Shown piece by piece: positions 969-15,571 of a stretch of 15,700 nt of DNA. Position 1 is the first letter of the stretch. Each line of letters starts with the position of its first letter. A model generated the notes under the pieces. It had not been told where the DNA came from, ran no database searches, and worked only from the letters and a program-made list of their open reading frames with translations. The DNA is from Pseudomonadota bacterium (GTDB lineage: Bacteria > Myxococcota > Bradymonadia > UBA4248), in the NCBI GenBank assembly GCA_017613855.1, contig JAGACY010000362.1:1-15700 (forward strand), in the 5' to 3' direction. The position numbers were made by a program, and so were the translations under genes.

Positions 969-998
969 GAGCTATCGGCGTTTTACGCCGATACGCTC
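969..998 (+). repeat. Two-tier hairpin, first of a pair after the Cys-rich gene
   Basis: Outer stem GAGC (969-972) with GCTC (995-998), 5' internal loop TA, inner stem TCGGCG (975-980) with CGCCGA (986-991), loop TTTTA, 3' internal loop TAC. It starts six bases after the stop codon. It belongs to the TA/TAC hairpin family described in the findings. There is no T-run behind it; the next hairpin supplies the terminator. Confidence 0.7.
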
Positions 999-1002
999 TG
1001 CG

Positions 1003-1049
1003 AAATCCGGCTATTCCGGCTTACACCGGAATACGCCGGATTTTTTTTT
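1003..1049 (+). terminator. Strong intrinsic terminator with two-tier stem
   Basis: Outer stem AATCCGGC (1004-1011) with GCCGGATT (1035-1042), inner stem TTCCGG (1014-1019) with CCGGAA (1026-1031), internal loops TA and TAC, apical loop 1020-1025. Nine T follow (1041-1049). This is a rho-independent terminator for the Cys-rich gene and the best-formed member of the TA/TAC hairpin family. Confidence 0.9.
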
Positions 1050-1096
1050 AAAAAAAAGCTCCGCAAAATGTAACAATGACATTCTCGATGGCATCA

Positions 1097-1125
1097 TTAT
1101 CATGAGGGAATTGTCCTTCTATACT
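1097..1125 (+). promoter_or_regulatory. Sigma70-like promoter for candidate RNA
   Basis: TTATCA (1097-1102) and TATACT (1120-1125) are separated by exactly 17 bases. The -10 matches the consensus at five of six positions and the -35 at four of six. The predicted transcription start near 1131-1133 coincides with the 5' strand of the first helix of the candidate RNA. It was found by eye only. Confidence 0.5.
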
Positions 1126-1130
1126 AAGCC

Positions 1131-1440
1131 AGGAGGCAGCGGATGTATCCATCGGGATTTGTCTGACGACAGAAATACCTCCCCGACATAATGTACGGTC
1201 AACCGAGGGGCGGTTTATCAGCATCTTCCCCTGGACGCAGGAGAAATGCTGAAAGTACAGTACATGCCACGCACATCATGCTTTATTACGACTTTTCAAG
1301 TCGGAAAGGGAGTAGTGTGCAAACTCGCTGTAATTCAGGGTTGGACGGCGAGTCGGCGGGTGGGAATGGGAGAGAGGTAACCCTTTAGGTTACCTGAATA
1401 GAGATTGGTCGTATGTGCGTTCAACAACCACACATAACCA
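1131..1440 (+). ncRNA. Candidate structured non-coding RNA, unknown class
   Basis: No gene fits here, yet the sequence folds into consecutive closed helices. 1132-1136 pairs with 1178-1182, enclosing hairpins 1142-1153 and 1162-1173. 1191-1196 pairs with 1260-1265, enclosing 1201-1215 and 1218-1224/1246-1252. 1271-1276 pairs with 1315-1320, enclosing CTTT/AAAG and the perfect hairpin 1289-1303. 1323-1331 pairs with 1345-1353 (nine pairs), 1376-1382 with 1388-1394 (seven pairs), and 1406-1409 plus 1412-1417 with 1431-1440. Several pairs are G.T on this strand (1329/1348, 1276/1315, 1227/1243), which would be A.C if the minus strand were the RNA, so + is favoured. A promoter sits just upstream. 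No T-run terminator was found; another perfect hairpin at 1504-1521 may belong to it. Hallmarks of RNase P, tmRNA, SRP, 6S, T-box and group II domain V were sought by eye and not seen. The rest of 1441-1566 holds nothing else I can support. Confidence 0.5.
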
Positions 1441-1566
1441 CACTAAACCGCGCAATATAATTTGCTCATTCTTGTTGTTTCTGCTGATCTCTTTGAGGTT
1501 AAATGAATGCCTGGACATTCAGTGGCAAATCAATTCGCCGAGCAGCCAACATCAAAAGCAAGGGAA

Positions 1567-2292
1567 TTACTTCTTCATAATCCCAAGTATTATCAAAGCA
1601 ACAGCGACCAGTACCAGTACAATCGTCGCAATAAGATAGTTTCTTGCACTTTTGGAAACCGTAACACTCTCATTATCAATTGGCTCACTGGAAACGACGA
1701 TGCGCTTTAGTTGGCGATTCATTTCTATATATGGCTCGCCATTTCGGCAATAGACAGCACCTGCCACTGTGAGCTCCCCCGGTTTCATAATACTTTCAGT
1801 ATAAGTGAGGTGACCTTTGAAATCAGTCTCTGTTGACAAGCCTATATAACTAGCTTCGTATGTGTCATTATCCTCACTGGGAATGACATGAATGGAAGCC
1901 GATTTGTCGGTGAGATCAAAAGGCGCGGCTTTGATTTTCAGATCTTTGGTCGTACCTTTTGTGATGCCATGATGCACTTCGTTCTCATCGCGTTTGTCTG
2001 AAACTTCTTCATAGCGATAGAAAACACACGGTGTATGTGTATAGCAGCTTTCTAATGAAGCTTCGGCCGTTCCAGAAAGTATATAATCACCGAGGAACGT
2101 TTCATTCTCTTTGTTATCGGCATTTGCTGATAATTCTTTACATCGCTTTACAATATCTTCGATGGTTGCATTTTTGGCTTTTCTAATAAACCGAATGCTT
2201 TTCCAATTATCATACCAAAACATCAGCGTACCAATCGAGAAGAACAGAACGAAAGCTGCGCCCAATATACAAACGCCAAAAACATCAGACAT
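1567..2292 (-). CDS. GIDE-domain-like two-span membrane protein
   Basis: 241 residues. A membrane span at about residues 5-26 and a second at about 218-238 bracket a soluble region. That region resembles the GIDE domain shared by mitochondrial MUL1-type proteins and many uncharacterised bacterial membrane proteins: a G-T-A-E-A segment at 74-78 leading to P-C-V-F-Y-R-Y at 88-94, a P-F-D-L-T-D strand at 124-129, and P-G-E-L-T-V-A-G at 171-178. There is no RING domain, so ubiquitin-ligase names sometimes given to such bacterial proteins do not apply. AAGGAA lies nine bases before the ATG. Nothing is established about the role of bacterial GIDE proteins beyond a likely envelope location. No clear terminator was seen downstream; the gene runs convergently toward the candidate RNA. 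Confidence 0.75.
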   Translation of the reverse strand: MSDVFGVCILGAAFVLFFSIGTLMFWYDNWKSIRFIRKAKNATIEDIVKRCKELSANADNKENETFLGDYILSGTAEASLESCYTHTPCVFYRYEEVSDKRDENEVHHGITKGTTKDLKIKAAPFDLTDKSASIHVIPSEDNDTYEASYIGLSTETDFKGHLTYTESIMKPGELTVAGAVYCRNGEPYIEMNRQLKRIVVSSEPIDNESVTVSKSARNYLIATIVLVLVAVALIILGIMKK

Positions 2293-2427
2293 GAGTCTAA
2301 TTTCCTTTTAGTATGCCATTACCATATCACCCAAAGAGATGCGGCAATCCAGTTCAATAACAGGGGGATTTTCAGGGTTGCGCAATTGCTTCACCCCAAG
2401 GCATATTCTACTCGCCCTTTTGATGCT

Positions 2428-2676
2428 TTACCAAGAAATTATATAATTAATGAGCCGCAGCAATCCTTTTGCTGCACCATATATAGAATGTGATGATTCT
2501 GCATTGCACATTCTTGAATAATTATCAGATATATGTTTAACCAATTGGGTCGCTGACGATTCTGCAGCAAAGGAGTTGGATGTATTTTCAACCGGCATGG
2601 AGGAGGGTGAGTGTTTGCATGCGACAACACTCAATATTATACAAATGAAGATTCCCGATCGCAGATGATATATCAT
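2428..2676 (-). CDS. Small putative lipoprotein
   Basis: 82 residues from the ATG at 2676. The N-terminus has a basic, then strongly hydrophobic segment ending in V-V-A-C (Cys20), an acceptable lipobox, so a lipid anchor is likely. The mature part is short, polar and Ser-rich, with a weakly hydrophobic end. The frame extends upstream to a GTG at 2727, but that start would put 17 polar residues ahead of the signal peptide, so the inner ATG is preferred although its ribosome binding site is poor. No family is recognised. It lies 78 bases after the next lipoprotein gene on the same strand and could be cotranscribed with it. It may be a decayed gene; the evidence is the signal peptide alone. Confidence 0.5.
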   Translation of the reverse strand: MIYHLRSGIFICIILSVVACKHSPSSMPVENTSNSFAAESSATQLVKHISDNYSRMCNAESSHSIYGAAKGLLRLINYIISW

Positions 2677-2736
2677 TTTTCTGTAATCAGGAATCTCTTT
2701 GCCATCTGACACGAAAAGTGAAGTCACAGATGAGCC

Positions 2737-2755
2737 ATCCGAAACATCTTCGGAT
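2737..2755 (-). terminator. Possible hairpin at stop of lipoprotein gene
   Basis: A perfect seven-pair stem, ATCCGAA (2737-2743) with TTCGGAT (2749-2755), overlaps the stop codon of the 3285-2755 gene. No T-run follows on the minus strand, so termination is uncertain. Confidence 0.3.
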
Positions 2756-3285
2756 TACTCGGCATGTACATCTTCCTCGTTTTTAGGAGCGTCAGCCGGG
2801 GCTTCTTCGGCTTTATCCTCTTTTGCAGGTGCTGCTTTGAGCTCACCTTTCTTGTATTTATTATACTCGCTCACATTGCCTTCATCATCCGGGAAGGTGA
2901 GCATGTCACCCGAAAGGCTGATAGCGCTTTTGGTATAGTATTGTTCATTATCGCCGGATGCAGGGAAATCGACGGTAAGAATATTAAAACGGCCGCCATA
3001 TTCTGCAGGTGTCTTAATTTTAAATGTACAATCTTTGAGGTCTTTATCCGTCAATCCCTTCGCCTTGCATTTGCCGTCTTCCATAAAAACATAGATACTG
3101 GGGTCATCGTCGACGGTCTGTATCCATGTGCCGGCTAAATCTTTAGGGGTTATGGCAGGATCGGCTGGGACTGCCTGTGCAGCTTCGGTATTGTCTGTTT
3201 TGGCAGGTTCTTCTGCTTTTTTGTTGCATGCGCCCAAAGATATGAGCATGAATGAAGCGGCTGCAATAATAATGATTTTTTTCAT
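2755..3285 (-). CDS. Lipocalin-like lipoprotein
   Basis: 176 residues from the ATG at 3285, which has AAGGAA six bases upstream; a longer frame to 3354 exists but would place 23 residues before an obvious signal peptide. The signal is M-K-K followed by isoleucines and alanines, ending in L-G-A-C (Cys20), a clear lipobox. A Pro/Ala/Glu linker leads to a domain (about 48-145) starting L-A-G-T-W, the pattern that opens small lipocalin-like beta-barrels in bacterial lipoproteins; Cys73 and Cys86 may form a disulfide. The C-terminal 30 residues are Ala/Lys/Glu/Pro-rich and probably disordered. The ligand is unknown. A two-hairpin 3' element of the preceding operon separates it from that operon, so it probably has its own promoter, which I could not place. 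Confidence 0.8.
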   Translation of the reverse strand: MKKIIIIAAASFMLISLGACNKKAEEPAKTDNTEAAQAVPADPAITPKDLAGTWIQTVDDDPSIYVFMEDGKCKAKGLTDKDLKDCTFKIKTPAEYGGRFNILTVDFPASGDNEQYYTKSAISLSGDMLTFPDDEGNVSEYNKYKKGELKAAPAKEDKAEEAPADAPKNEEDVHAE

Positions 3286-3325
3286 TTGTAATTCCTTGTT
3301 GAAATAGAGAGACGCCATGCGCCCC

Positions 3326-3399
3326 AAAAAAGCGAGCCGTATTGCCACAGGCAATAGGCGAGCAAGCGAGCTGTAGGGACGCGGCCTCAGGCCCGCCCC
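3326..3399 (-). terminator. Paired hairpins at 3' end of DUF4139 operon
   Basis: Read on the minus strand, the first unit (3399-3376) has outer stem GGG/CCC and inner stem GCG-GCC with GGC-CGC around loop TGA. The second (3359-3336) has outer stem GCC/GGC, internal loops TA and TAC, inner stem TTGCC/GGCAA and loop TGT. T6 follows at 3331-3326. The short motif AAGCGAGC occurs three times around them (about 3330, 3364 and 3401). The second unit shares its flanks with the hairpin at 14658-14696. Confidence 0.65.
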
Positions 3400-3419
3400 A
3401 AAGCGAGCACCAATAATAA

Positions 3420-5642
3420 TTATCCTTGTCTTACGTACTCGAGAGTACGGGCATATTCTTTCATACGAAGTTCAATTTCGCCTTTTTTTACCTGGAGTTC
3501 ATAGAGTTCGCCGGTAATTTCGACGAGCGTCTGTTCGTTCGATTTTTGGCGTGCCATGAGCTGATTGCGCAGCGAATCTGCATTGGATGTCTTGATATCC
3601 TTGAGTCCGGCGAGTGTCTGAGACAATGAGTTTTGATCCTGCTGGATTTCGTTGCGTCGTGTCTGCAGCGAATTGAGTTTGACGTTTATTGTGTCGAGTG
3701 TCTGGGCGTCCTCGTTGAATTGCCTGAAGTTTTCGGCCAGTTCTGCCGGGATTTGGTTGTTCTGAAGTGCCGTTTGAATCGCCTGCTGGCATTCACTGAG
3801 ATCCGCGCCACCTCTTGCCATCGGCCGAGAATTCGGGAAATCGCGCTTCATCGTGAGTGCCATCGGCGTCTTGGCATTGGCTTTGGCTAACACAGGAATG
3901 ATGAAGTGCTCGCTGGTATCGGCGGTATCCTGCGGGAAATTGACGGCATTCCAGCCGGGGAATTTCTGCATTTGGATGAGCGCGGTCGTATCGTTGCCAA
4001 TATGGCTATCGACCTCGAAATTGTTGGTCATCGTCTGTTCGACGGTATAGGCGCAGCGACCATTTTGAATCGAATCGAGGCGATAATTCTGAGTTGAGTT
4101 CTGATCGACCACGGCGACCGAGATTCTGCCTTCATTGGCAAACGTGATATAGGCCATGGCGTTTGACTCGGTTCTGGACAAATAGCCCTCACCAATGACG
4201 GCACTGTCTCGGTAAATCGTGATTGGCCCCGAATCGAGTGCGCTCCCGTTTGAATTCTTAAGTTCGATGGTCTGGAAGGATTTGGAGGTTTTCCAGCCTT
4301 TATAGAAGCCATCAAATCCATAGATGCCATCCGCTTTGATGAGGCGTGTATCGCGTGCAGACATGTCCTCGTTGATGATATTGACGAGCGCGGTACTGCC
4401 ATCGGGAATGGTCAGCTTGGATTTGGTTTCGTATACGTCAAAAGAGCCGATCTGTGCTTTGGAAGCGAGTTCAGTGAAGCTGTTTGCCATTTCGGAAGTC
4501 GTGATAGCCTGGGGAACAGCATAGCCGGCTTCGACATCATCCATTGAATCCTTATATTCATATTCGGCCTCTTCATCCATTGCAGCTTCGGCAGCCATAT
4601 CCATCATCATTGAATTGGCGGCTCTTCCACCGGCGGCTTTGGATTTTTGGGCTGCACGCATGCTTTCTTTAGCCATGGGTGCTGCAGCGGGCATTGGCGC
4701 TTCCCTATTCGCACCGTATGCAGAGGCGACGACTTCGGGGGCTGCAGCGCGCTGTGCCGCGAGTCCGGAGAGATCGGGACGTGCAAGGAACTGTGGTGTA
4801 TAGAGGTCATAGGTAAAGCTCATTGGCTGTCCGGAGACGAGCGAGAATGAAATGTTGTTCCAGTCGGCGCCCGAGACATTGCTGATGACGGCCCACCCCT
4901 GAAGAATGCCTTTTTCGTTGTCCGTCAAAACGAGTCGATAAGCGGGTTTCCATGTGGGCATGGCCACGAGGTAACTCATGGCGAGTTCCCGTTTCTTGTC
5001 AGAATCCATGCGGATTCGGAGTTCGAGCTGTTTCCAGTTGCCTTCGTTCAGGCTGATATTGAGGCTTTTGTCGAGCCCATCGGCAAGGCCCTTGTCGTAG
5101 AGAGTGACGGATTTGATATCGGCCAGGGAGAGGACCTCGAGTACATCGTTATTCGTCTTGATGGTAACTTTGGTGAGGTCTTTTTGTTCTTCGGTGATAG
5201 AGAGCTCACTGATTCGGGTGGGCTCATCAATGCCAACGATGCGGCCTTCATAGGTACCGTTTCTCGTTTTGATTTTGACATTGGCCCCGCGGAAAGCCCC
5301 AAGCAGTGCGCGAATGCCGCCACTACGAACCTGTTCGGGAATTTGTGCAAGACTGTCGAGGGTATCGCGATCGACGGGAAGGGAAATCGAGACAGGACTG
5401 CCCTTTCCGCGATCAATGACCGTGAGTGATTTGAGGATATCATTAATTTGATCGGGGCGAATGCGCAAAACGAGTTCATTGCCTGAAACAGTGGCTGCGC
5501 GTTCGACATACCCGATACCGCTCTGGTACATGACGACACGGGAAACCGGCAATTCGACCCCCGCAGACGGATGTTGAATATTCTGCTGACATCCCATTCC
5601 GAATAAAGCCATACAACAAAGAGGCAGCCAGAATTTTTTCAT
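3420..5642 (-). CDS. DUF4139-family lipoprotein with coiled-coil end
   Basis: 740 residues. A hydrophobic signal ends in G-M-G-C (Cys18), probably a lipid anchor though position -3 is unusual. The central part matches DUF4139: P-T-W-K-P-A-Y-R-L at 229-237, then W-A-V-I-S-N-V-S-G at 250-258, W-N-N at 261-263 and S-L-V-S-G-Q-P at 267-273. An Ala/Met-rich insert of about 90 residues (295-385) with an acidic patch interrupts the family domain. The C-terminus (about 640-735) is a long predicted coiled coil rich in Gln, Asn and Leu. Family members are envelope proteins of unknown biochemical role, sometimes labelled mucoidy inhibitor-like. AAGGAG lies eight bases before the ATG. The upstream phosphoesterase-like gene ends only 12 bases away, so the two are very probably one operon. 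Confidence 0.8.
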   Translation of the reverse strand: MKKFWLPLCCMALFGMGCQQNIQHPSAGVELPVSRVVMYQSGIGYVERAATVSGNELVLRIRPDQINDILKSLTVIDRGKGSPVSISLPVDRDTLDSLAQIPEQVRSGGIRALLGAFRGANVKIKTRNGTYEGRIVGIDEPTRISELSITEEQKDLTKVTIKTNNDVLEVLSLADIKSVTLYDKGLADGLDKSLNISLNEGNWKQLELRIRMDSDKKRELAMSYLVAMPTWKPAYRLVLTDNEKGILQGWAVISNVSGADWNNISFSLVSGQPMSFTYDLYTPQFLARPDLSGLAAQRAAAPEVVASAYGANREAPMPAAAPMAKESMRAAQKSKAAGGRAANSMMMDMAAEAAMDEEAEYEYKDSMDDVEAGYAVPQAITTSEMANSFTELASKAQIGSFDVYETKSKLTIPDGSTALVNIINEDMSARDTRLIKADGIYGFDGFYKGWKTSKSFQTIELKNSNGSALDSGPITIYRDSAVIGEGYLSRTESNAMAYITFANEGRISVAVVDQNSTQNYRLDSIQNGRCAYTVEQTMTNNFEVDSHIGNDTTALIQMQKFPGWNAVNFPQDTADTSEHFIIPVLAKANAKTPMALTMKRDFPNSRPMARGGADLSECQQAIQTALQNNQIPAELAENFRQFNEDAQTLDTINVKLNSLQTRRNEIQQDQNSLSQTLAGLKDIKTSNADSLRNQLMARQKSNEQTLVEITGELYELQVKKGEIELRMKEYARTLEYVRQG

Positions 5643-5654
5643 AGAATAAGCTCC

Positions 5655-7763
5655 TTAAAATTCGACGACTTCAATCGAAATATCATCCGGATTCGGGTTT
5701 GTATAAGCGTTTGGTATTTCGACATACAACCAGTGATTTTTTTTGTCGGAAAACGAGGCCATTTCTCCCCCGCCACCGCCTGTAATATACATGGGAATTC
5801 CTCCCATCGAATAGCTGCTGAATTCGTGTGAGCGACCGGAAAACACAGCAGAGACATTGGCTTTTATCAGTGCAGACAGGAGAGAAGCGGCACTATCTTT
5901 TGATGTAAAGGCATTTCCTCGGGAACCGTACCGATCGAACAGCGGTGTATAGCTGAATACGAGTCGAATCGGCTGAATGCACATTCCATCCTCACCACAA
6001 GTGCCTCCATTGCCGCAATCTTCATCGCGCGTGCAAATGCAAGTACTGTCCGTCCCATCCATTTTTTGGCATGTGAAATTATTTCTGCATATTTTGGATG
6101 ATTCCGGGACACAAACACAATTTTCGGGTCCGAGTGTATAATCGGATCTCCCGGCATCCGGAGGAATGCAATATGCTTCGGTTTGAATACACTCTCGGCA
6201 TGTAACATTTTCCCCGGCAGAACGTCCAAGGATGCTGCGGCATTCGGCGAGTGTCGGCCATTCAGCATAGAGCGTTGGAGCAGGAATATTGCATTTGGCA
6301 TGTTCTGGGGAATCGAGCACCTTCTGAAGCCATGCTCTTTGACCGGAAGCGATCGAGGCATCGGCCGTATCCAAAACGACAAGCTGTACTTTTCCTATGG
6401 TTGAAGCGCTATTGGAAGGTCCGAACAAAGCAGTAAACTCGTCCAGGCCCGAACCATTAAACTCATCTTCCCCGAGACTGGCCAAAAAAGATTTTTTATA
6501 AAAGACGGCATTGCAGATGTTATCAAAAACACGAGTCCGTTTATCTGAGCAGCAAACATTATTTTCAATTACACTGCAGCAATTGACATTTATTTCCTCA
6601 ACTTCTTCCGGAGTAAATGCATCGGATAAATCCGTTTCATCCAAACAGAGTGAGCCATCTGCCACAACGAACTCATCATCGATGAGCTCACGCATGGCTT
6701 TAAATTGCGATGCGGATCCATCTTTTGTGAGATTGCCCATACTGATGATGACATCCACTCCCTTTTCGAACATGAGTTCAAACATATTGGAGAGCGCATC
6801 CACTCCATTTACATTCGCCAGAATATTGGCAGTGTCCTTATCGAGTATGCTTTCCAAAAGATCGAATAATTTGCCTTTTTGATTTTCGACATTCGAGAAG
6901 ACAGCAATTCGAAGCGTATTGTCAAAAAGGACATCACTGTTTTGATTGCCATCGGGTGAAGGCACAAGGACTTCGCTTTTTGGAACAATTTTTACGGTGA
7001 GTTTGCGGCACCCACAGGGTTTAAAGCAGAAATCGAAAGATCCGCCGGTATCGGAAATATCACAGCAAGCGTTCATTGTCGTTTCCGGGGTACCGTTATT
7101 GTACTTGGTGGTCAGAATTTTCAGCGGCGGATTTCCCCGGAAAGCAGCAGCCAACGGGATGGGTGAAAAAGCATCGCATGCGTATGCAGCGGAAGGGACA
7201 GAAGAAGTATAGGGCGAACGATCAACTTCTTCGGCAAAACAGTTTTCGTCGTCGAGCATTTCAGCAGAAATGACGAGCTGATACATGCCCTCATAGATCT
7301 GCTCACAAAATTTTCCTTCCCCCGATGCCTCGCTACAGCTTTCGACAACCGTCCCCCCTTCGCATGTGGTGCTCAACCGCTCATAAGAAGTGGAATTGCA
7401 CCTTTCATAAAGATCGAAAAGCGTCGTCTGCAAATTATGCAGTGAGATACCGATAGCGCCATCCGTATCGCCACGTATGCCCTGAATGGTTTCGAGCGTA
7501 AAATGTGGAAATGGTGCATTTGCCTGTGCATTAAAGACCGTCAGATTATTTTCGCCGCTCATTTCGGAAACAGCAGGGCAGCGAAAGACATCGAGCGAAT
7601 CATCCTCTATCTGACTTGCACCATAAGCGATGAGTTTAGAAGAAGTCGATTCAAAGGTATAGGCATCCTCCTGGGTACTAAATCGTTCGCCATCGGAAGA
7701 ATTGCACGCCGCGTTAATACAAAGCATCGCGGAAAGCGTTATAGCAAGCGTATTTCGAGACAT
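5655..7763 (-). CDS. Calcineurin-like phosphoesterase relative, probably inactive, Cys-rich
   Basis: 702 residues. The signal peptide ends A-A-C at Cys20, possibly lipidated (Asn at -3 is atypical). The fold is suggested by the order of motifs: strand I-A-V-F-S-N at 286-291, D-V-I-I-S-M-G-N-L-T at 337-346, L-V-V-L-D-T at 461-466 with G-Q-R-A-W-L at 474-479, L-V-F-S-Y-T-P-L-F at 601-609, and V-F-S-G-R-S-H at 640-646 before a glycine run at 662-666. Each metal-ligand motif is altered: D-x-H reads N-x-E, G-D reads G-N, no G-N-H-D/E is found, the H of H-x-P is Y, and G-H-x-H is G-R-x-H. A Cys-rich insert with a C-x(5)-C-x(5)-C block lies at 491-595. I infer an exported pseudoenzyme or binding protein. 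An in-frame TAA directly precedes the ATG; no good ribosome binding site is visible. Confidence 0.75.
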   Translation of the reverse strand: MSRNTLAITLSAMLCINAACNSSDGERFSTQEDAYTFESTSSKLIAYGASQIEDDSLDVFRCPAVSEMSGENNLTVFNAQANAPFPHFTLETIQGIRGDTDGAIGISLHNLQTTLFDLYERCNSTSYERLSTTCEGGTVVESCSEASGEGKFCEQIYEGMYQLVISAEMLDDENCFAEEVDRSPYTSSVPSAAYACDAFSPIPLAAAFRGNPPLKILTTKYNNGTPETTMNACCDISDTGGSFDFCFKPCGCRKLTVKIVPKSEVLVPSPDGNQNSDVLFDNTLRIAVFSNVENQKGKLFDLLESILDKDTANILANVNGVDALSNMFELMFEKGVDVIISMGNLTKDGSASQFKAMRELIDDEFVVADGSLCLDETDLSDAFTPEEVEEINVNCCSVIENNVCCSDKRTRVFDNICNAVFYKKSFLASLGEDEFNGSGLDEFTALFGPSNSASTIGKVQLVVLDTADASIASGQRAWLQKVLDSPEHAKCNIPAPTLYAEWPTLAECRSILGRSAGENVTCRECIQTEAYCIPPDAGRSDYTLGPENCVCVPESSKICRNNFTCQKMDGTDSTCICTRDEDCGNGGTCGEDGMCIQPIRLVFSYTPLFDRYGSRGNAFTSKDSAASLLSALIKANVSAVFSGRSHEFSSYSMGGIPMYITGGGGGEMASFSDKKNHWLYVEIPNAYTNPNPDDISIEVVEF

Positions 7764-7860
7764 TTATCAAAACAGGAAGGCAGAAGACCCTTTCGTCATC
7801 CGTCCATTGAATTCCGGACAGAAGACAAACAGGTAAAATGCGCATGATCTTCGGAATTGC

Positions 7861-7889
7861 AGAATAGAAGCGGCAGCCGCAGTCCCCAA
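7861..7889 (-). promoter_or_regulatory. Possible promoter of the two-gene operon
   Basis: On the minus strand TTGGGG (7889-7884) and TATTCT (7866-7861) are 17 bases apart, giving a leader of about 90 bases to the ATG at 7763. Both boxes are weak matches. Confidence 0.3.
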
Positions 7890-7927
7890 ATGTGTTTTCA
7901 CGAGAGGAGAGATACCACAAAATGAAA

Positions 7928-7995
7928 GCACATCCGTATTCGCGAAGCGAACAGGATGTGCAAGCCGTGCGTATTGCCGAAGGCAAAAGCACGGC
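7928..7995 (-). repeat. Paired two-tier hairpins after the kinase gene
   Basis: Unit 7964-7995: outer stem GCCGTGC/GCACGGC, inner stem TTGCC/GGCAA. Unit 7928-7961: outer stem GCACATCC/GGATGTGC, inner stem TTCGC/GCGAA. Read in the kinase sense (minus), the internal loops are TT and TAC in the first and TG and TAC in the second, with loop TTC in both. The T-rich stretch after the second unit suggests termination. The outer stems are perfect but unrelated in sequence, so the shape is kept rather than the bases. Confidence 0.75.
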
Positions 7996-8044
7996 AGCCA
8001 CCGCATCTTATCGAAAAACCATCATTCCTGACAGCACAAAAGCA

Positions 8045-9673
8045 CTAGAACGGCAAATCAATCTGCGAGTCTTTTGGACGCGGATCTGCTCCGCCAGAGG
8101 TCGGAGGCTGGCCGCCAGGTTTTGTGGGCTTAGTCTTTCTGCTTCTGACGACATCTAATTTATAGGCATCCTGCGTTGCTTCAGAAACACTCTTAGAAGC
8201 ATTCTCAATTGCCATTTTCAGCAGTTTAACTTCCAGTTCGTTAACTTTTGCGGCATTGTCATCGCCGGCATCGGGCACCGGTTCGGGTTTAGGAACCTCT
8301 TCCACCACCGGAGCGGGTTCCGGTTCAGCCGCAACAGGTTCAGTCGGCTGATTCTTCGCATCATTGAGATAATTCAGGTAAAGATAAAGCCCGACCATGG
8401 CCCCGATAACGATAATCACGCCGATAACGATATACTTAACCTGTCCGCCGCCAACTTTTTTGCTGGGATTGGTAATCAGTATGGTTTTGGATGCTGCATA
8501 TTTTGCCCTTACAACATCCTTATTCTTTTCCCAATCACGATGGCATTTATCTTCCTGTTCAAGCGCCTTATCGATATGCGCGCGAATATCGTCTAGAACG
8601 ACCTGCGCTGAATGATATCGGTTTTCAGCTTTTTTCGCGCATAGTTTTCGAATAATGGTGGCGATATCAGGCGGAATACTCCCCGGAATAAAGAGTTCCT
8701 CATTGACCTGTTTATAGGCCACGCGCATGAAGGATTTATCATTGACGGCGATTTCGCCGGTAAGACATTCGAGATAAACGAGACCGACAGCGTAGAGATC
8801 GCTTTCGATACTGGCATGTGTATCGCCGGTAAAAAGTTCGGGTGCCATATAAGAAGGCGTACCTCGAACATTTCCCTGCTGTGTCATGAGTGTCTGGCTC
8901 TGCAGACCGTCGAGAACGCTGGAAATACCGAAATCGAGCACGCGGATTTCAAAATTGGGGGGTGTATCAAACACCATAATATTGCTGGGTTTGATATCAC
9001 GGTGAATAATTTTCCGACTGTGTGTCTCGACGAGTGCGTTGAGGAGCTGAATGATAATATTGGTCGACTGTGCGAGCGGGAGAGCGCCGTAATTTTCCAG
9101 TATTTTGTCGAGTGAAAGTCCGTCAATGAACTCCAGGACCATGCAAGGCGTTCCCTGATAGCACCCATAGTCGACGCACTGGACGATATGTTCCTCATGC
9201 AGCGAAGCAATCAGTTTAGCTTCCCGCATGAAACGTGCAATTGCGGTTTTGGCTTCTTTTTCATCGAGCCCGCCGGAGACCTGCAGGACTTTGATGACAA
9301 CATGCATGTTGTCCATCTTTCGCCATGCTTCGAGAACGACAGCACAACCGCCGCGTCCGATGGGTTCTCCTACATTATAGTCATTAGAAATCTCACGATA
9401 TTCTTCGGCAACAGCAGCGAACATCGACTCAACGGCGGAGCCGGGCATCTGAAAAGCGCCCGAAATCTGGCTCAGAGCAGGCTGATCTGCTGACGAGGGA
9501 CGATGGACATATTCAGGCACAGGCTTATCGTAGCCATCCTGAGCATAGGGCGCATTATAGCTTGCCGTACTGAGGATATCCTCTATGGCTTCATCAGACT
9601 CAGTTTGAGCTTCATATAATTGAGTTCTTTCGCCCAGGTCATCCATTGGTTTATCCGAAAAATCTCCAAGCAT
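8045..9673 (-). CDS. Hanks-type Ser/Thr protein kinase, one membrane span
   Basis: 542 residues from the ATG at 9673. All core kinase motifs are present: glycine loop G-R-G-G at 106-109, V-V-I-K with Lys128, Glu151 of helix C, H-R-D-I-K-P-S-N at 224-231, D-F-G at 247-249, A-P-E at 277-279. The kinase should therefore be active toward Ser/Thr and sits in the cytoplasm. A basic stretch leads to a membrane span at about 413-433, then a Pro/Glu/Val-rich linker (442-468) and a short helical, then Pro/Gly-rich outer segment without a known sensor domain. The frame opens at 9754, but a promoter overlaps that codon and GGAG lies seven bases before 9673, so the inner ATG is chosen; a competing ATG at 9679 is too close to the GGAG. 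It is divergent from the giant surface protein gene, about 400 bases away. Its targets are unknown. Confidence 0.93.
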   Translation of the reverse strand: MLGDFSDKPMDDLGERTQLYEAQTESDEAIEDILSTASYNAPYAQDGYDKPVPEYVHRPSSADQPALSQISGAFQMPGSAVESMFAAVAEEYREISNDYNVGEPIGRGGCAVVLEAWRKMDNMHVVIKVLQVSGGLDEKEAKTAIARFMREAKLIASLHEEHIVQCVDYGCYQGTPCMVLEFIDGLSLDKILENYGALPLAQSTNIIIQLLNALVETHSRKIIHRDIKPSNIMVFDTPPNFEIRVLDFGISSVLDGLQSQTLMTQQGNVRGTPSYMAPELFTGDTHASIESDLYAVGLVYLECLTGEIAVNDKSFMRVAYKQVNEELFIPGSIPPDIATIIRKLCAKKAENRYHSAQVVLDDIRAHIDKALEQEDKCHRDWEKNKDVVRAKYAASKTILITNPSKKVGGGQVKYIVIGVIIVIGAMVGLYLYLNYLNDAKNQPTEPVAAEPEPAPVVEEVPKPEPVPDAGDDNAAKVNELEVKLLKMAIENASKSVSEATQDAYKLDVVRSRKTKPTKPGGQPPTSGGADPRPKDSQIDLPF

Positions 9674-9740
9674 TCGCATACTCCGGAAATCGAAACTACT
9701 GATTATGGCCGCCGCTGTCAAGAGGCACTTCCATCTTACG

Positions 9741-9768
9741 AAGATACGTTCCATGCATAAAAGGTCAA
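9741..9768 (-). promoter_or_regulatory. Promoter for the kinase gene
   Basis: Minus-strand TTGACC (9768-9763) and TATCTT (9746-9741) are 16 bases apart, with a predicted start near 9735 and a leader of about 60 bases to the ATG at 9673. This excludes the longer frame start at 9754. Confidence 0.45.
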
Positions 9769-10070
9769 ATTTTCAGCCTCCCGTTTATTTTGGTTTTCAC
9801 CAACCTGTCAAAAAAAAAAGGTTCTGATGTCCGAGAGTGGATATGTTGTTCGCCGATAATTGGCATTCCGGCTTGGAGCTTGGAGATGGTTTCTTGCACG
9901 CAAGGCTCTGAGTTCCAGGCTCTGAGTTTATCAATACGCTTGTCATACAGTGTCCCCCCAAAGCCCTGTTCTTGGGGATTTCTCAGTTCCTTTTCCGAAA
10001 TTATTTTTAATAATTGAGCGAATGTGCTATCATTTAAAGGCTTTTTATTTTCCGTGATGGAGATTATGTC
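9769..10070. other. Divergent intergenic region, no gene
   Basis: About 300 bases without a credible gene. It holds an A-run (9812-9820), two sets of direct repeats (9871-9928), a hairpin CCCCAA (9956-9961) with TTGGGG (9972-9977), and an AT-rich block. A -10-like TATCAT at 10028-10033 has no good -35 at 16 to 18 bases. GGAG at 10059-10062 serves the gene at 10071. The leader of the giant protein gene is therefore uncertain. Confidence 0.5.
9871..9928. repeat. Short direct repeats upstream of the giant protein gene
   Basis: GCTTGGA occurs twice in tandem (9871-9877, 9878-9884), and GGCTCTGAGTT occurs twice at 9904-9914 and 9918-9928, a period of 14. They may be protein-binding sites or slippage products. 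Confidence 0.75.
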
Positions 10071-13000
10071 ATGAAAAAAGAAATTACAATTACCGCATTA
10101 TGCGTCGCACTTGCAGCCCTGAGTGGCTGTTCCGGCTCCGATAACCAGGCACAATCCAATGAAGACATTGCCACCCATAGTCAGGCACTGTTTGGTGAAA
10201 CAGGCGGACTTCCCTATGGCAGTGCAGAAGCAGCTTTTATCGTGGACAGCGCTCCGGCCAATGAAGCCTATTTCGGGCGTGCCCTGGCTGTGGGCCATAT
10301 CAACCCAAACAAATCGATTGATATCGTGACTTCGACCGGCAGTACGAAAACTCATGGCAGAGTCATCGTTGCGTGGGACAACAATTCCTCACAAAGCGTT
10401 TTTGAAATCAGCCCCAAAGGCAAGGATGATTTCGGAGCAGCCATCGCTGTTGGCAAATTCTGCCCGAACCTCACCAGTGATGATATCATTATTGCCTCTG
10501 CCCCCAGCTACAGCAGCTACAAGGGTGCCTTTGGTTTTATCTACAAAGACAGTACACGTTACCGCGTTGCAAAAAAGATCATCTATGGCGGAACCAATAA
10601 GGAAATCGCAGGCGGTGCCTTTGCCATAGGCGATGTGGATGGTGACGGCAACAATGATATTGTCTTCCGTTCATCCCCTATAGACGATGACGACAACTGG
10701 GAAAAGACAAAAGTCAACGTGATGCTGGATATCTGTAATGCCGGCACCAATATGGTCATTGCAGACAGCGTAGAAGCAGAATCCGAAGATTTCATGCTGG
10801 GTTCCGCCATTTATATTGCAGACCTGGACGGTACAGGAACCAATGAGATTGTCGTCGTAGACAACCTCTTCCGCGCGGATGACAATGCAGAATATTCCCC
10901 CAACGGTGCCATATTTTTCTACAAATTCTCGGGCGGCAAACTGGTGGAGTCCAGAACGCCCATCATTGGCGATCTCGACAAAGCTGGCGCTTCGATCGAG
11001 GCGGTCGCATTTTCAGACATCAATCACGATGGCAAACTCGACCTGATTGTTGGCGAGCCCATGTGGAACAATGTTGCAAAACGGGAAGGACGCGTACGCA
11101 CCTATACGAACCTTGGTGCATCCGCAGGTTTTGATGATACCTCCCTCTGGACGAAGACCTCCGGACGCAGCAATGCACGCTTTGGTTCAAGTGTCACCAT
11201 TGCCGATCTGAATCATGACGGCGTGGATGATCTCATCGTAGGCGCACCGGGAATCCGCCCCTCTGATACAGACAAGGCCCAGGGTGATGTCTACATTTAC
11301 ATGGGTACCAAAGACGGAACCATTTTCTCAAAAGAAGCCTTCTGGACCTATAATTCAAATGTCCCGACTTCACTCAATGACGATTTCGGCCGCAATGTCG
11401 TTGTTACGGATGTGGATTCTGCCGGTTGGGATGATCTGGTTGTCGCAGCCCCCAATTACAGTCCGGACAGTTCCAATCCCGATCAGGGACGTCTTTCGGT
11501 ATTTAGTGAAAAGGATGATTTTTGTTATGCCGCATCCCGTTGCCTCGTAGATGGCGTTTGCTTCGAAGCGGGAGAAACACTTGACGGCGACAAATGCCAG
11601 TTCTGCGATCCCTCACAGCATAATTTTGAATGGAGTGAGGTTTCGTGTTCCGGCGCTGAAACAGAATGCCAGAGTGCAGCCACATGTGATCCCTCCGCCG
11701 GATGTACCATGATCAACAAACCGGATGGTACGGCATGCGGAAGCCCAAGCTGTGACAAAGATAACAATTATGTGACCAATGCTTGTACCAGCGGCGTCTG
11801 CAAACCTACGACGACGACATGCAGCGGATATGGATGTGACGCCTCTTCGGGTTGTCTGACCGGCTGCTCAACAAACGAGGATTGCCAGGACGGATTTACC
11901 TGCCAATCAGGACAATGTGTCAACCTTCCCCCCACCATAACGCTCGCTGCCAATTACACCCTCATGCTGGGCGAAACCATTACCATCAAACCCACAATCA
12001 AAGACCCGGAAGGAGACAAATTTACCTTTAGCTGGACAGTCTCTCCCACCACAAATGTTACCGCAAACTATACAGATACCCTCAATCCCCGTGTTCACGC
12101 AGGCAACAATGCCATTGCCGGCGACAAAATGACACTCACGCTCGATGTCACGGATGCGGCAGGCAATACCGTTTCTGCAACGACCACAGTGACCATCAAG
12201 GGCATCGATTTGGTCATGACATCACCACAGAATCATGCAGCCCTCGAAGATTATACGGTCGTCTTTTCGGGAACAACGTCCCTGGGCTCGGGCAAGGGCT
12301 CCATCATTGTCACCAGCGAAGAAGGTGAACCTGCTCTGTGCACAGCCACCATCCAGGCGGATGGTTCCTGGTCATGCTCGTATACTTATGACACCCCGGG
12401 CAATCAGGGAGCCTTTGCCTACTGGAGCCGAAATTCCAAAGAGAGAACCGACGAAGTCATCTTCTCCTTTGTTGATCCCAAATCCTCTTTGAGTATTACC
12501 AGCCCAACCGATGGCCAAATTCTGACAGATCCCAAGGTCACCATCGCCGGAAAAATCGATTCCTATATTACCTATATAAATGGCGGTGTCCTCGTAGAAA
12601 CTACCAATGGCCAAAACATTTGTAAGGCGACCATTTCCTACAATTCATGGTCCTGCACCACGAACCTGGAACCGGGCTCCTATCAAATTGTTGCCTATAA
12701 AGATGATAATGTCGCATTGAAATCCTCTGTGGTCAACTTCACCATTCAGGATCCGATTTCGGCAAACAATCCCCCGATTATCCTCGTTAACCCCTCATTT
12801 AATGTCGAACCGGGTGGAAGCGTCCGCCTCAATGCCAGCAAATCCTATGACCCCGATGGCGATCCGATTACCTTCTCATGGTCGGGTGCCGATGTCTCGC
12901 GACTTTCGAATGCTACGAGCAAATATCCAATGTTCTATGCGCCGGAGGATGCTGTCCCCGGAACAGAATACCACGTCACGGTGACAGTTGCAGACGACAA

Positions 13001-14609
13001 GAAAGCAACGGCCTCATCCAATATAACGATCTACGTCATCAGTCCGGACTACAATATCGAGATTACATCCCCAACCGAAGGGGAAGTCATCAATACCGAA
13101 ACGTTTGCTGTTTCGGGAACGACCGATATGCCCAATGGCCAAAAAATCATCGTTACAAATGTCGACACAAACGCAGTCATCTGTACGGCAGAAGTGGTCG
13201 ACAAAGCCTGGAGCTGCGAGTCCTCATTAAGTCCGGATCAGTACACCATCGTAGCAACATGGGCAGGCGATTCCAAAGTTGCCTCAAGTCCGGTTCATTT
13301 CGAAATCGCTTCCTCTATCCCCTTCAATCAGCCGCCTGTCATTATCCTCCAGGATCATTATGAGGCCCAACCTTATGATGTCTTTGTTCTGGATGCCTCC
13401 AGCTCATACGACCCGGATGGAGATACCATTTCCTTCGAGTGGAGCGGCGAATATATCAGCATGCTCTCTGGAACACATGACAGTACCCCAATCGTCAGTA
13501 TCCCAGATTCCGTCGAAGATGGAGATGAATTGACGTTTACCCTGACTGTCACGGACGATAAAGGCGCCTCCGCTGAGGCAGAGACAACCGTCTTCATTAC
13601 AAAACAGGCAAGCACTTATTTCGTCGAAATTACGGATCCTGCTCAAAATGTCAGTGAATCGGTTGAACGCTCCAACCCCATTACCATTACAGGTAAAGCA
13701 ACTCCTGATGTCGATATTTGGGTGCTCGATACAGAAACTAACGCTCTGATCTGTCAAGCCAATTCAGATCCCATTGATGGTAACTGGAATTGCACCACGA
13801 CGCTCAACACGGGAGACTATGCCGCACAGGCATTCGCCGTTGTCGATAGTGTCGAAGTCGCCCATTCCGGCATTTCCAAATTCACCATCCTCGACAACAT
13901 GTCCTTCAGCACACCTGTCATTCTGACACCGGCCAACGGTGAGATCACCTCCATTCGCCCAACGGCATCCGGTACCGTCAACGCGACAGATGGCAAGGTT
14001 TATGTCTGGATCGTCGAAGGCAATGTTTCTACTTTGTTCTGCGAATCTGAAATTGTGGATAACAAATGGATTTGCACCGTCGGATACAACCTCGAGAACG
14101 CTACCGAATACACCATCCGTGCAAACTGGTCAGATGGCGTTGATCAAAGCAGCACCATGTCAGAACCCGTCACCTTCACAACCCAGGGCGCGGAAGTCTC
14201 CCAGATTTCGATTAAATCACCTGCCGACGGATCCGTTCTCAGCGCCAGTAAACCCGTTATCTTTACAGGCACAGCCGATCCCGATACACAAGTCGATGTT
14301 TATGTAGACGGCATGCTCGCTTGCACCGCAGTTGCAAACGAAAATAAATACTGGGCATGCACCGATATTTACATTGGTGTGGGGTTACACGAAGCTTATG
14401 CGGATGACGGCAGCGACGACAAGATCATCCCATCCAAATCCGTATTCTTCACCATTGAAGTGAGCAAAATTTCAGCTCAATCCGAATACAATAACGCCAG
14501 CGGCGGCTCCTGCAGCATTTCGACACCTTCGAATGCCGGTCATTTCGGATGGCTCTTCCTGCTCGCTGGTTTTGCAGGCCTGGGAATCGTAAGACGCCGA
14601 AAAGCCTAA
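10071..14609 (+). CDS. Giant FG-GAP/PKD/Ig-like surface lipoprotein with MYXO-CTERM-like tail
   Basis: 1512 residues; GGAG lies eight bases before the ATG. The signal peptide ends L-S-G-C (Cys20), a good lipobox. Seven FG-GAP/VCBS-type repeats lie at about 67-90, 119-145, 178-203, 239-265, 305-330, 367-394 and 437-462, matching a seven-bladed integrin-alpha-like propeller; several carry calcium loops such as D-V-D-G-D-G at 188-193. A Cys-rich block spans 485-617. Three PKD-like domains (about 619-710, 898-990, 1085-1178, the last two with D-P-D-G-D) alternate with six Ig-like modules (about 711-803, 805-893, 993-1080, 1182-1274, 1278-1371, 1376-1463), each with a Cys followed 9 to 13 residues later by a W-x-C pair. 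The end is Cys1481, a hydrophobic span (1492-1507) and R-R-R-K, as in MYXO-CTERM sorting signals. It is probably an adhesin or surface binding protein. A terminator follows. Confidence 0.92.
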   Translation: MKKEITITALCVALAALSGCSGSDNQAQSNEDIATHSQALFGETGGLPYGSAEAAFIVDSAPANEAYFGRALAVGHINPNKSIDIVTSTGSTKTHGRVIVAWDNNSSQSVFEISPKGKDDFGAAIAVGKFCPNLTSDDIIIASAPSYSSYKGAFGFIYKDSTRYRVAKKIIYGGTNKEIAGGAFAIGDVDGDGNNDIVFRSSPIDDDDNWEKTKVNVMLDICNAGTNMVIADSVEAESEDFMLGSAIYIADLDGTGTNEIVVVDNLFRADDNAEYSPNGAIFFYKFSGGKLVESRTPIIGDLDKAGASIEAVAFSDINHDGKLDLIVGEPMWNNVAKREGRVRTYTNLGASAGFDDTSLWTKTSGRSNARFGSSVTIADLNHDGVDDLIVGAPGIRPSDTDKAQGDVYIYMGTKDGTIFSKEAFWTYNSNVPTSLNDDFGRNVVVTDVDSAGWDDLVVAAPNYSPDSSNPDQGRLSVFSEKDDFCYAASRCLVDGVCFEAGETLDGDKCQFCDPSQHNFEWSEVSCSGAETECQSAATCDPSAGCTMINKPDGTACGSPSCDKDNNYVTNACTSGVCKPTTTTCSGYGCDASSGCLTGCSTNEDCQDGFTCQSGQCVNLPPTITLAANYTLMLGETITIKPTIKDPEGDKFTFSWTVSPTTNVTANYTDTLNPRVHAGNNAIAGDKMTLTLDVTDAAGNTVSATTTVTIKGIDLVMTSPQNHAALEDYTVVFSGTTSLGSGKGSIIVTSEEGEPALCTATIQADGSWSCSYTYDTPGNQGAFAYWSRNSKERTDEVIFSFVDPKSSLSITSPTDGQILTDPKVTIAGKIDSYITYINGGVLVETTNGQNICKATISYNSWSCTTNLEPGSYQIVAYKDDNVALKSSVVNFTIQDPISANNPPIILVNPSFNVEPGGSVRLNASKSYDPDGDPITFSWSGADVSRLSNATSKYPMFYAPEDAVPGTEYHVTVTVADDKKATASSNITIYVISPDYNIEITSPTEGEVINTETFAVSGTTDMPNGQKIIVTNVDTNAVICTAEVVDKAWSCESSLSPDQYTIVATWAGDSKVASSPVHFEIASSIPFNQPPVIILQDHYEAQPYDVFVLDASSSYDPDGDTISFEWSGEYISMLSGTHDSTPIVSIPDSVEDGDELTFTLTVTDDKGASAEAETTVFITKQASTYFVEITDPAQNVSESVERSNPITITGKATPDVDIWVLDTETNALICQANSDPIDGNWNCTTTLNTGDYAAQAFAVVDSVEVAHSGISKFTILDNMSFSTPVILTPANGEITSIRPTASGTVNATDGKVYVWIVEGNVSTLFCESEIVDNKWICTVGYNLENATEYTIRANWSDGVDQSSTMSEPVTFTTQGAEVSQISIKSPADGSVLSASKPVIFTGTADPDTQVDVYVDGMLACTAVANENKYWACTDIYIGVGLHEAYADDGSDDKIIPSKSVFFTIEVSKISAQSEYNNASGGSCSISTPSNAGHFGWLFLLAGFAGLGIVRRRKA

Positions 14610-14621
14610 TACCTCAAACAT

Positions 14622-14650
14622 AAGCCGCTCTTTTGGGGCGGCTTTTTTTT
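14622..14650 (+). terminator. Intrinsic terminator of the giant protein gene
   Basis: AAGCCGC (14622-14628) pairs with GCGGCTT (14638-14644), followed by eight T (14643-14650). It starts 12 bases after the stop codon. Confidence 0.9.
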
Positions 14651-14657
14651 GGCACTC

Positions 14658-14734
14658 GCCTATGCAGGGTACGCTGAAGCGCACCCTGCATACGGCTCGC
14701 AAAGCCGCTATTTGCACGCAAATACGCGGCTTTT
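14658..14734 (+). repeat. Paired two-tier hairpins after the giant protein gene
   Basis: Unit one: GCC (14658-14660), TA, a long stem TGCAGGGT (14663-14670) with ACCCTGCA (14683-14690), TAC, GGC (14694-14696); inside, CGC/GCG closes loop TGAA. Unit two: AAGCCGC (14702-14708), TA, TTTG/CAAA core (14711-14722), TAC, GCGGCTT (14726-14732), then a short T-run. Both show the TA/TAC internal loop in gene sense. They lie beyond a separate ordinary terminator, so termination is probably not their only reason to exist. Confidence 0.75.
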
Positions 14735-15064: not shown

Positions 15065-15502
15065 CTATTCCTCATCATCCCAATCCGAACAACCATCACA
15101 CGATTCACACGAATGGCAGCCACTACAGCCATTCTCACCATGGCACCCGTGGCAACTGCCACAACCGCAGCCGCAGCCACCGCCGCCAAACAATTCCCTC
15201 AACTCAGGATCGAGCGCTGTAATCAAAAATCCACCGCCCTCTTCCATGGCTTCATACTGTATATCCAGCCCCCCCACTGAATTGAGCAAATCCCGTTCGA
15301 CAATGACCTTGAGTTCATCGAACTCACAGCATTCATCTGTTTCTCGGGAATAATCATCGAGTGTCAGACTCCATTCAGGCCCATAGCCGCTCAACCCCGA
15401 GATATAAATGCGAATACCCTGCCCGGGACGCGCATTGGCCTCTCTGGCGAGCAATTCTTTAAGGTGAATGACGGATTCTTCTGAAATTGTAAAAGGTACC
15501 AT
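15065..15502 (-). CDS. HesB/IscA-like protein with Cys-rich C-terminal tail
   Basis: 145 residues from the ATG at 15502, which has AAGGA about eight bases upstream; the frame also opens at a TTG at 15526 with no support. Residues 1-100 match the A-type Fe-S carrier/HesB fold: I-S-E-E-S start, G-I-R-I-Y-I-S-G at 29-36, L-T-L-D-D at 46-50, a G-G-L-D-I-Q-Y strand at 77-83 and G-G-G-F at 89-92. The first cluster Cys of IscA, within its G-x-C-x-G turn, is absent: here the turn reads S-G-L-S-G. C-G-C-G does occur at 110-115, in the place of the usual C-terminal Cys pair, but leads into a tail with ten cysteines (110-138) mostly in C-x-x-C steps with interspersed His, ending in an acidic stretch. 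The domain suggests iron-sulfur or metal handling in the cytoplasm; the tail looks metal-binding. Symbol withheld because the missing Cys makes IscA function doubtful. Confidence 0.82.
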   Translation of the reverse strand: MVPFTISEESVIHLKELLAREANARPGQGIRIYISGLSGYGPEWSLTLDDYSRETDECCEFDELKVIVERDLLNSVGGLDIQYEAMEEGGGFLITALDPELRELFGGGGCGCGCGSCHGCHGENGCSGCHSCESCDGCSDWDDEE

Positions 15503-15571
15503 TGGGTGTTCCTTGTGAATATGCAAAACTAAAGTGTGACTCTAAAGCTAAGGGTGAAGAGCATTTCAAAT

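What the first reader, a model, noticed from the sequence alone, without database searches (positions are those of the whole stretch)
969..14734. Family of paired two-tier hairpins at gene 3' ends with TA/TAC internal loop
At four places (969-1042, 3336-3399, 7928-7995, 14658-14732) a gene is followed by two adjacent hairpins. Seven of the eight units have an outer stem, a 5' loop of TA, TG or TT, an inner stem usually starting TT, and a 3' loop of TAC; the unit at 3376-3399 is the looser one. Orientation always follows the upstream gene, on both strands. Stem bases differ while pairing is perfect, as if covarying. This resembles REP/palindromic units in spirit, but the loop signature and sense orientation are distinct. 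At least two pairs end in a T-run; the last lies beyond a separate terminator.
Basis: partly seen in the sequence, partly recalled or inferred. Interest (0 to 1): 0.8.

Follow-up and report, generated by a model that had tools for sequence, protein, structure and literature searches.

The report
Shape-conserved tandem DNA hairpin repeats
A family of gut Myxococcota carries many copies of a tiny double-hairpin DNA repeat, mostly between its genes, whose stem letters differ in nearly every copy while the fold and one small internal loop stay the same, so the repeat seems to be recognised by shape rather than by sequence.

Summary
The window has exactly seven strict two-tier hairpins (60 dinucleotide shuffles: none) plus a looser eighth. 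The core is C-T[A>T>G]-T...stem...A-TAC-G. In orthologs of the near relative UBA4248, the 71 stem pairs that both species form show 6 double and 0 single changes.

It is a clade-wide repeat: 8 of 8 held genomes of the bacterial family, 8 of 57 of the class, 2 of 140 across the phylum. In 744,772 bases of seven relatives I counted 206 units (2 in one shuffled control), mostly intergenic. All 54 two-unit clusters are direct repeats.

'Orientation always follows the gene' does not generalise: 57 co-directional, 38 opposite. Gene 3' ends are preferred, not exclusive. Wobble pairs are rarer than in local terminators, pointing to DNA-level or both-strand folding. Longer forms keep near-identical flanks around a tip that differs in 42 of 42 copies read; one lies among phage tail genes.

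Best reading: REP-like dispersed palindromic DNA elements recognised through the TA/TAC loop, arms kept matched by template switching plus selection. REP tag, inverted pairing and linked RAYT are missing. The recogniser is unknown.

The parts
969..998 (+). unit 1a: GAGC-TA-inner-TAC-GCTC
   Evidence: ortholog in L001 16237-16265 with one double change and two tip pairs lost
1003..1043 (+). unit 1b: 9-bp outer stem, TA/TAC loop, followed by T-run
   Evidence: ortholog L001 16194-16232 with one double change and one outermost pair lost
3336..3359 (-). unit 2b: GCC-TA-TTGCC-TGT-GGCAA-TAC-GGC, followed by T-run
   Evidence: no alignable ortholog in L001
3370..3404 (-). unit 2a, the looser one: GCT-TT-inner-TAC-AGC (closing T:A, inner G:C)
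   Evidence: perfect relative in L005 3892-3924
7928..7961 (-). unit 3b: TG/TAC loop, 8-bp outer stem
   Evidence: ortholog L001 7074-7107 with one double change
7964..7995 (-). unit 3a: TT/TAC loop, 7-bp outer stem
   Evidence: ortholog L001 7040-7071, stems unchanged
14658..14696 (+). unit 4a: short outer stem GCC/GGC, long inner stem
   Evidence: ortholog L001 284-322 with three double changes
14701..14733 (+). unit 4b: 8-bp outer stem, TA/TAC loop
   Evidence: ortholog L001 246-279, shared stem pairs unchanged
14622..14644 (+). ordinary intrinsic-terminator-like hairpin with T-run, just upstream of the fourth pair; not a unit

Best explanation
The units belong to a clade-specific superfamily of REP-like dispersed palindromic DNA elements in gut Myxococcota related to UBA4248. 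SHOWN: the commonest multi-unit form is a direct tandem of two imperfect hairpins, usually no more than 10 nt apart, T-rich and A-poor on both sides of its own strand; each hairpin keeps the asymmetric internal loop C-T[A]-T / A-TAC-G, while outer stem, inner stem and tip vary. Longer forms (families A and B) wrap a unit in near-identical G/C hairpins; B is scattered in tens to hundreds of copies per genome, and one copy is in a phage contig. INFERRED: the hairpin acts as folded DNA (single-stranded, or extruded), read mainly through the loop by a host or mobile-element protein, so stems are free to change as long as they pair. INFERRED: copies spread as non-autonomous elements into T-rich intergenic DNA, best tolerated near gene 3' ends. 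INFERRED: arms stay matched because replication template switching copies one arm from the other and selection keeps the loop. The recogniser is not identified.
For: A count over all 1024 loop types ranks TA/TAC first (110, mean 0.66; the next three ranks are other registers of the same motif by their letters). 206 relaxed units in 744,772 bases against 2 in one block-shuffled control. 54 of 54 two-unit clusters are direct. Flanks: TTTT within 12 nt downstream 31 against AAAA 2, upstream 23 against 3, of 118 clusters. 28 of 206 unit centres fall in called genes although 84% of bases are coding. G-T 24 and A-C 18 of 2002 stem pairs, against 21 and 4 of 416 in 42 terminator-like hairpins of the same stretches. 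Window against L001: 6 double, 0 single changes in the 71 pairs formed in both species, 0.51 doubles expected if arms were independent. Family B 5' half (up to 2 mismatches): 22 to 171 matches in each of 7 genomes, 0 for the reversed pattern; 42 of 42 G006 copies read (of 167 matches) have different tips inside near-constant flanks; one copy among phage baseplate genes. 8 of 8 family genomes.
Against: No transposase is tied to the units: Y1_Tnp in 5 of 7 genomes, with unit clusters at 5 of 10 such loci, about what the background density gives. No insertion with an empty site was shown. Basic units are nearly all different (206 relaxed units; within each of six genomes all full sequences distinct, in G007 30 of 31), which is unlike recent copying. 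The ortholog count leaves out five end pairs formed in one species only, where changes were one-sided or indels. Family-B tips do show one-sided changes (60 one-sided, 65 two-sided pair changes in 19 non-independent comparisons), so coupling is strong, not absolute; of those one-sided changes 35 give A-C and 10 G-T, a hint that the opposite strand may be the one that folds. The commonest stem mismatch in units is C-T (42 of 2002), unexplained. The wobble contrast is modest (p 0.03 for the G-T to A-C ratio). Weak co-direction with genes (57 to 38) leaves room for an RNA role.
Confidence: 0.5

Rival explanations
1. RNA elements at transcript 3' ends: double-hairpin terminators or stabilisers bound by an RNA-binding protein through the internal loop.
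For: 3'-end preference (46 of 63 nearer the stop); the second hairpin has the longer outer stem in 42 of 54 pairs and TTTT follows 31 of 118 clusters, 12 of 36 of the co-directional but 2 of 24 of the opposite ones; all four window clusters are in sense.
Against: Orientation to genes near random (57 to 38); 16 clusters lie between divergent genes; opposite-strand clusters are as often nearer the stop as co-directional ones (19 of 26 and 27 of 37); wobble pairs rarer than in local terminators; T-runs also lie upstream (23 of 118).
Confidence: 0.2
2. Classical REP/BIME elements spread by a RAYT (TnpA-REP) transposase.
For: Intergenic, many copies, two-tier hairpin with an internal mismatch as in E. 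coli REP (PMC8266576 passages); NF047646 over cut-off in 2 of 7 genomes.
Against: GTAG/CTAC in the 6-nt feet of 3 of 206 units, CGTC/GACG in 15; pairs are direct, while head-head dimers predominate among REPs (PMC3733652 passages); both NF047646 hits over cut-off lie inside MmeI-type ORFs; none over cut-off in the other 5 of 7 genomes.
Confidence: 0.12
3. Nested MITE insertion: an inner palindrome inserted at TA in the TAC loop of an older hairpin, TA/TA(C) being the target duplication.
For: Tips contain recurrent palindromes (GGGACGTTCCATGGAACGTCCC and kin) found in family A, family B and other contexts.
Against: No empty family-B site among the places listed for 7 genomes at up to 2 mismatches: they read as 3' halves of full elements, and the one 1-mismatch place (G002, L202) also has an inner hairpin. 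Inner stems share no common terminal repeat beyond the T:A pair.
Confidence: 0.06
4. Integron attC-like recombination sites folded as single strands.
For: Variable stems and tips with conserved unpaired bases are what attC sites show (recalled).
Against: No integron integrase over cut-off, 0 of 7 genomes; no constant outer-stem sequence that could be an R box (R box recalled); scattered among ordinary genes in the stretches seen.
Confidence: 0.02

Closest known systems
REP / BIME / REPIN elements (E. coli, Pseudomonas)
   Same: Short intergenic palindromes in hundreds of copies, two-tier hairpin with an internal mismatch, often paired (PMC8266576 and PMC3733652 passages)
   Different: No GTAG or CGTC tag, direct instead of inverted pairs, stems different in nearly every copy, no linked RAYT
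IS200/IS605 end hairpins and their solo derivatives
   Same: Imperfect ssDNA hairpins read through unpaired bases (PMC8266576 passages); direct orientation of the two ends is recalled
   Different: IS ends are sequence-conserved (recalled); no transposase gene was found bounded by units in the 10 Y1_Tnp loci looked at
Double-hairpin elements of fungal and algal mitochondria
   Same: Double hairpins scattered in organelle intergenic DNA and thought mobile (search listing; passages of PMC2800124 citing the Allomyces work)
   Different: Bacterial host, constant TA/TAC loop; sequence details of those elements were not read here
Integron attC sites
   Same: Structure kept while stem and tip sequence vary (recalled)
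   Different: No integrase over cut-off, no R/L boxes seen
Intrinsic terminators
   Same: Stem-loops at gene 3' ends, some followed by T-runs
   Different: Nearly orientation-free, two-tier, little wobble

Membership tests
REP (GTAG/CGTC superfamilies) | Tetranucleotide GTAG or CGTC at one foot | tested here: not met
   3 of 206 and 15 of 206 units have these or their complements in 6-nt feet
REP (GTAG/CGTC superfamilies) | Dimers predominantly inverted (HH, also TT) | tested here: not met
   54 of 54 two-unit clusters direct; definition from PMC3733652 passages
REP (GTAG/CGTC superfamilies) | High-copy intergenic palindromes | tested here: met
   206 units in 744,772 bases, 28 centred in called genes
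REP (GTAG/CGTC superfamilies) | Stem sequence conserved within a family of one genome | tested here: not met
   206 relaxed units; full sequences distinct within each genome except one repeat in G007; conservation holds only for the flanks of families A and B
REP (GTAG/CGTC superfamilies) | Cognate RAYT flanked by the elements | tested here: not met
   NF047646 over cut-off in 2 of 7 genomes, both inside MmeI-type ORFs; no excess of units near 10 Y1_Tnp loci; MAGs, so a missing gene is possible
Intrinsic terminators | Hairpin plus T-run in the sense of the upstream gene | tested here: not met
   Orientation 57 to 38, TTTT after 31 of 118 clusters
Integron attC | Integron integrase in the genome | tested here: not met
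   TIGR02249 over cut-off 0 of 7
Known RNA families (Rfam 15) | Match to a covariance model | tested here: not met
   Window: two sub-threshold hits, neither at a unit; 5 loci with long forms: 0 at E up to 0.5
TA-target MITE | Empty site with single TA | tested here: inconclusive
   None seen for family B in 7 genomes at up to 2 mismatches; strain-level comparison not possible
IS200/IS605-derived element | Binding or cleavage by a TnpA | not testable with these tools
   needs protein

The most novel reading that the evidence does not exclude
A shape-coded DNA repeat: probably several hundred to over a thousand sites per genome recognised only by an asymmetric TA/TAC internal loop in a hairpin of almost arbitrary sequence, with stem arms and tips continually rewritten by template switching, serving an unknown hairpin-reading protein (mobiliser, recombinase or chromosome organiser) confined to one family of gut Myxococcota.
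Probability: 0.3. Interest if true: 0.82.

Novelty: new variant of a known kind. Interest (0 to 1): 0.62.

Why it matters
The palindromic repeats of bacteria that I know of are recognised at least partly by sequence. Here the sequence is nearly free and the fold is fixed, copy after copy and genome after genome. That offers a natural experiment with hundreds of replicates per genome on how perfect stems are kept (template switching against selection), and points to an uncharacterised protein that reads DNA (or RNA) shape. It also warns that covariation alone, the usual proof of a structural RNA, can arise in what looks like a DNA element.

Tried and rejected
Own-genome scan: no whole genome is held for the window, so relatives were used. 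First alignment of units was unusable, second had shifted outer stems; the gap-free A4 was used. RAYT/Y1_Tnp link: not supported. Missing SbcCD as the reason for palindrome abundance: SbcD is over cut-off in 7 of 7 clade genomes. Integron: no integrase over cut-off. TA-target nested MITE: no empty sites seen. Rfam: nothing. Plasmid tblastn of the DUF4139 protein: only distant partial hits. Family-B core in the window: none. Literature: 'UBA4248' with Myxococcota 0 papers; REP with compensatory/hypervariable/internal loop gave 11 papers, none on REPs by title; REP with Myxococc gave 3 papers, unrelated by title and abstract start. Whether anything like this is in print is judged only from these searches and those.

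Limits: gene calls are from my own hexamer caller, not a standard tool. The 60 stretches (L043-L102) were mostly taken by contig number, but 7 of 60 (G001 C17 and C301, G005 C62 twice and C160, G004 C5 and C9) were picked from hit lists for length. Covariation counts on A4 use units found by requiring pairing and are therefore biased. The ortholog count covers only pairs formed in both species, so one-sided changes at stem ends are not in it (five pairs formed in one species only: two in 1a, one each in 1b, 4a, 4b). One search dropped 2 of 36 scan hits lacking the C and T core before its counts. flank counts leave out mixed-orientation clusters and those near contig ends (118 of 124 kept). The Fisher test treated clusters as regions and is not used; the length-based test is. 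The shuffled control is one block shuffle. Infernal counts are lower bounds: only 150 of 1982-3250 first-look candidates were scored per clade genome, and searches used stricter filters that can lose weak matches.
Full report
OBSERVATION. The window is a gut-type Myxococcota contig: its DUF4139 protein is 90% identical to one in Myxococcales bacterium UBA4248 (L001) and 51-66% to proteins of rumen and gut MAGs. The seven strict units are real and are the only ones in the window; 60 shuffles gave none. The eighth is a looser relative at 3370-3404. In all seven the closing pair is C:G, the 5' loop T plus A/G/T, the first inner pair T:A and the 3' loop TAC.

HOW COMMON. A covariance model of 15 units gave 201-244 matches at E up to 1 in each of seven related genomes, although only 150 first-look candidates per genome were scored, and 0 and 1 (E 0.129) in two distant deltaproteobacterial genomes. 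At E up to 0.001 it matches 8 of 8 genomes of the family, 8 of 57 of the class and 2 of 140 drawn across the phylum, both among the eight; the last two searches used stricter filters. A count of all 2/3 loop types in 744,772 bases puts TA/TAC first with 110, the mean over 1024 types being 0.66; CT/ACG (107), GC/CGC (76) and CC/CGG (20) come next and look like other registers of the same hairpins. A relaxed scan finds 206 units (186 TA, 17 TT, 2 TG, 1 TC), against 2 in a block-shuffled control. Density is 13 to 34 units per 100 kb by genome, which would be roughly 500 to 1500 per genome if the sampled stretches are typical (extrapolation).

ARRANGEMENT. The 206 units form 124 clusters: 57 single, 54 double, 11 triple, 2 quadruple. 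All 54 doubles are direct repeats, 49 of them with a gap of at most 10 nt; 5 larger clusters hold both orientations. The second hairpin has the longer outer stem in 42 of 54. The unit strand is T-rich and A-poor for about 12 nt on both sides: TTTT 31 times downstream and 23 times upstream, AAAA 2 and 3 times, of 118 clusters. Units avoid genes: 28 of 206 centres in called genes with 84% of bases coding. By gene arrangement there are 27 clusters between convergent, 63 between same-strand and 16 between divergent genes, where intergenic length predicts 17.8, 60.6 and 27.6 (p 0.012). Between same-strand genes 46 of 63 lie nearer the stop. Orientation to genes is near random: 37 to 26, family B 20 to 12, together 57 to 38, p 0.064. 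A T-run downstream is commoner in co-directional (12 of 36) than in opposite clusters (2 of 24), which is the best point for a transcript-end role.

STEMS. Stems are mostly G-C and nearly all Watson-Crick. G-T makes 24 of 2002 pairs, A-C 18 and C-T 42; terminator-like hairpins in the same stretches have 21 G-T and 4 A-C of 416. An RNA read in one sense should tolerate G-U and not A-C; the weak asymmetry points to DNA-level or both-strand folding, or to arms being copied from one another. Between the window and L001 three of the four clusters are orthologous. In the 71 stem pairs that both species form, 6 changed on both sides and none on one side; 0.51 double changes are expected if arms were independent, and all loops are unchanged. 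Five further end pairs are formed in one species only, through one-sided changes or indels. Replication template switching is known to make one-step paired changes (PMC8794818, abstract and start of the introduction seen).

LONGER FORMS. Comparing clusters revealed dispersed repeats in which the unit is embedded. Family B reads GGGGG-AAGT-CTCCCCCT-[A/G]CGCGGC-TA-T...tip...A-TAC-GCCGCTACCCCCT; family A is similar and ends in a further hairpin, TGCGGGG-loop-CCCCGCAACGCCCC, which some B copies also have. The 5' half of B occurs 22, 57, 104, 171, 115, 167 and 39 times in G001-G007 (up to 2 mismatches; reversed control 0). In the 42 G006 copies read in full (of 167 matches) the flanks are almost constant and all 42 tips differ, 8 to 142 nt long; of the outermost tip pairs (up to 8 each) 275 of 306 are Watson-Crick. 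Tips are modular: GGGACGTTCCATGGAACGTCCC and kin recur in B, in A and in other outer stems, and sometimes alone. Among tips of equal length and at least 60% identity, 65 pairs changed on both sides where 22 are expected, with 60 one-sided changes, 35 of them to A-C and 10 to G-T (19 overlapping comparisons). One full family-B element (L183 2209-2293) lies between the end of one baseplate gene and the part of the next that matches its family, overlapping that ORF's 5' end as called from the most upstream start, in a 43-kb viral contig; this suggests that it moves.

MECHANISM. I take these to be REP-like dispersed palindromic DNA elements recognised as hairpins through the asymmetric loop. Shown: repeat nature, clade restriction among the genomes searched, direct pairing, loop constancy, coupled arm changes. 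Inferred: folded DNA as the active form, mobility, template switching, the protein. In E. coli the REP mismatch is contacted by TnpA-REP and repairing it impairs activity (PMC8266576 passages), so loop-reading of a hairpin has a precedent. But defining REP features fail: no GTAG/CGTC tag, direct not inverted pairs (PMC3733652 passages), no linked RAYT. I therefore call it a new variant of a known kind, not a REP.

RIVALS. An mRNA 3' element is still possible, given the 3'-end preference and T-runs, but orientation and wobble data speak against it. Integron attC sites are made very unlikely by the missing integrase. Nested TA insertion lacks an empty site. Loss of SbcCD is not the cause, SbcD being present. 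No Rfam family matches.

Noticed in passing
L111 (G001:C245) ORF 1-2346 and L112 (G005:C16) ORF 166-1821: A REP-type Y1 transposase domain lies inside MmeI-type restriction-modification ORFs (between the target recognition and C-terminal domains in L111), in one open frame.
   Followed up: partly
L183 2209-2293 (IMGVR_UViG_3300020112_001123): A complete family-B element sits among baseplate genes of a 43-kb viral contig.
   Followed up: partly
G006 family-B tips, L143-L182: Long palindromic tips (up to 142 nt) built of recurrent modules such as GAGACGTGTCACGACACGTCTC and GGGACGTTCCATGGAACGTCCC; L182 has an internal tandem array.
   Followed up: partly
L165 about 3700-3800: Tandem array of GTAGGTACGTTCCAAAT ending in a related palindrome outside any unit.
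   Followed up: no
units of L043-L102: C-T mismatches are the commonest irregularity of the stems (42 of 2002 pairs), often just below a 3-4 bp outer stem as if a second small internal loop were part of the first hairpin.
   Followed up: partly
window 15065-15526 (-): 153-aa protein with a Cys/His/Gly-rich C-terminal tail, no Pfam match.
   Followed up: no
window 10071-14609 (+): 1512-aa FG-GAP/PKD repeat protein with a C-terminal hydrophobic segment and RRRKA end, like a sorting tag (inference).
   Followed up: no
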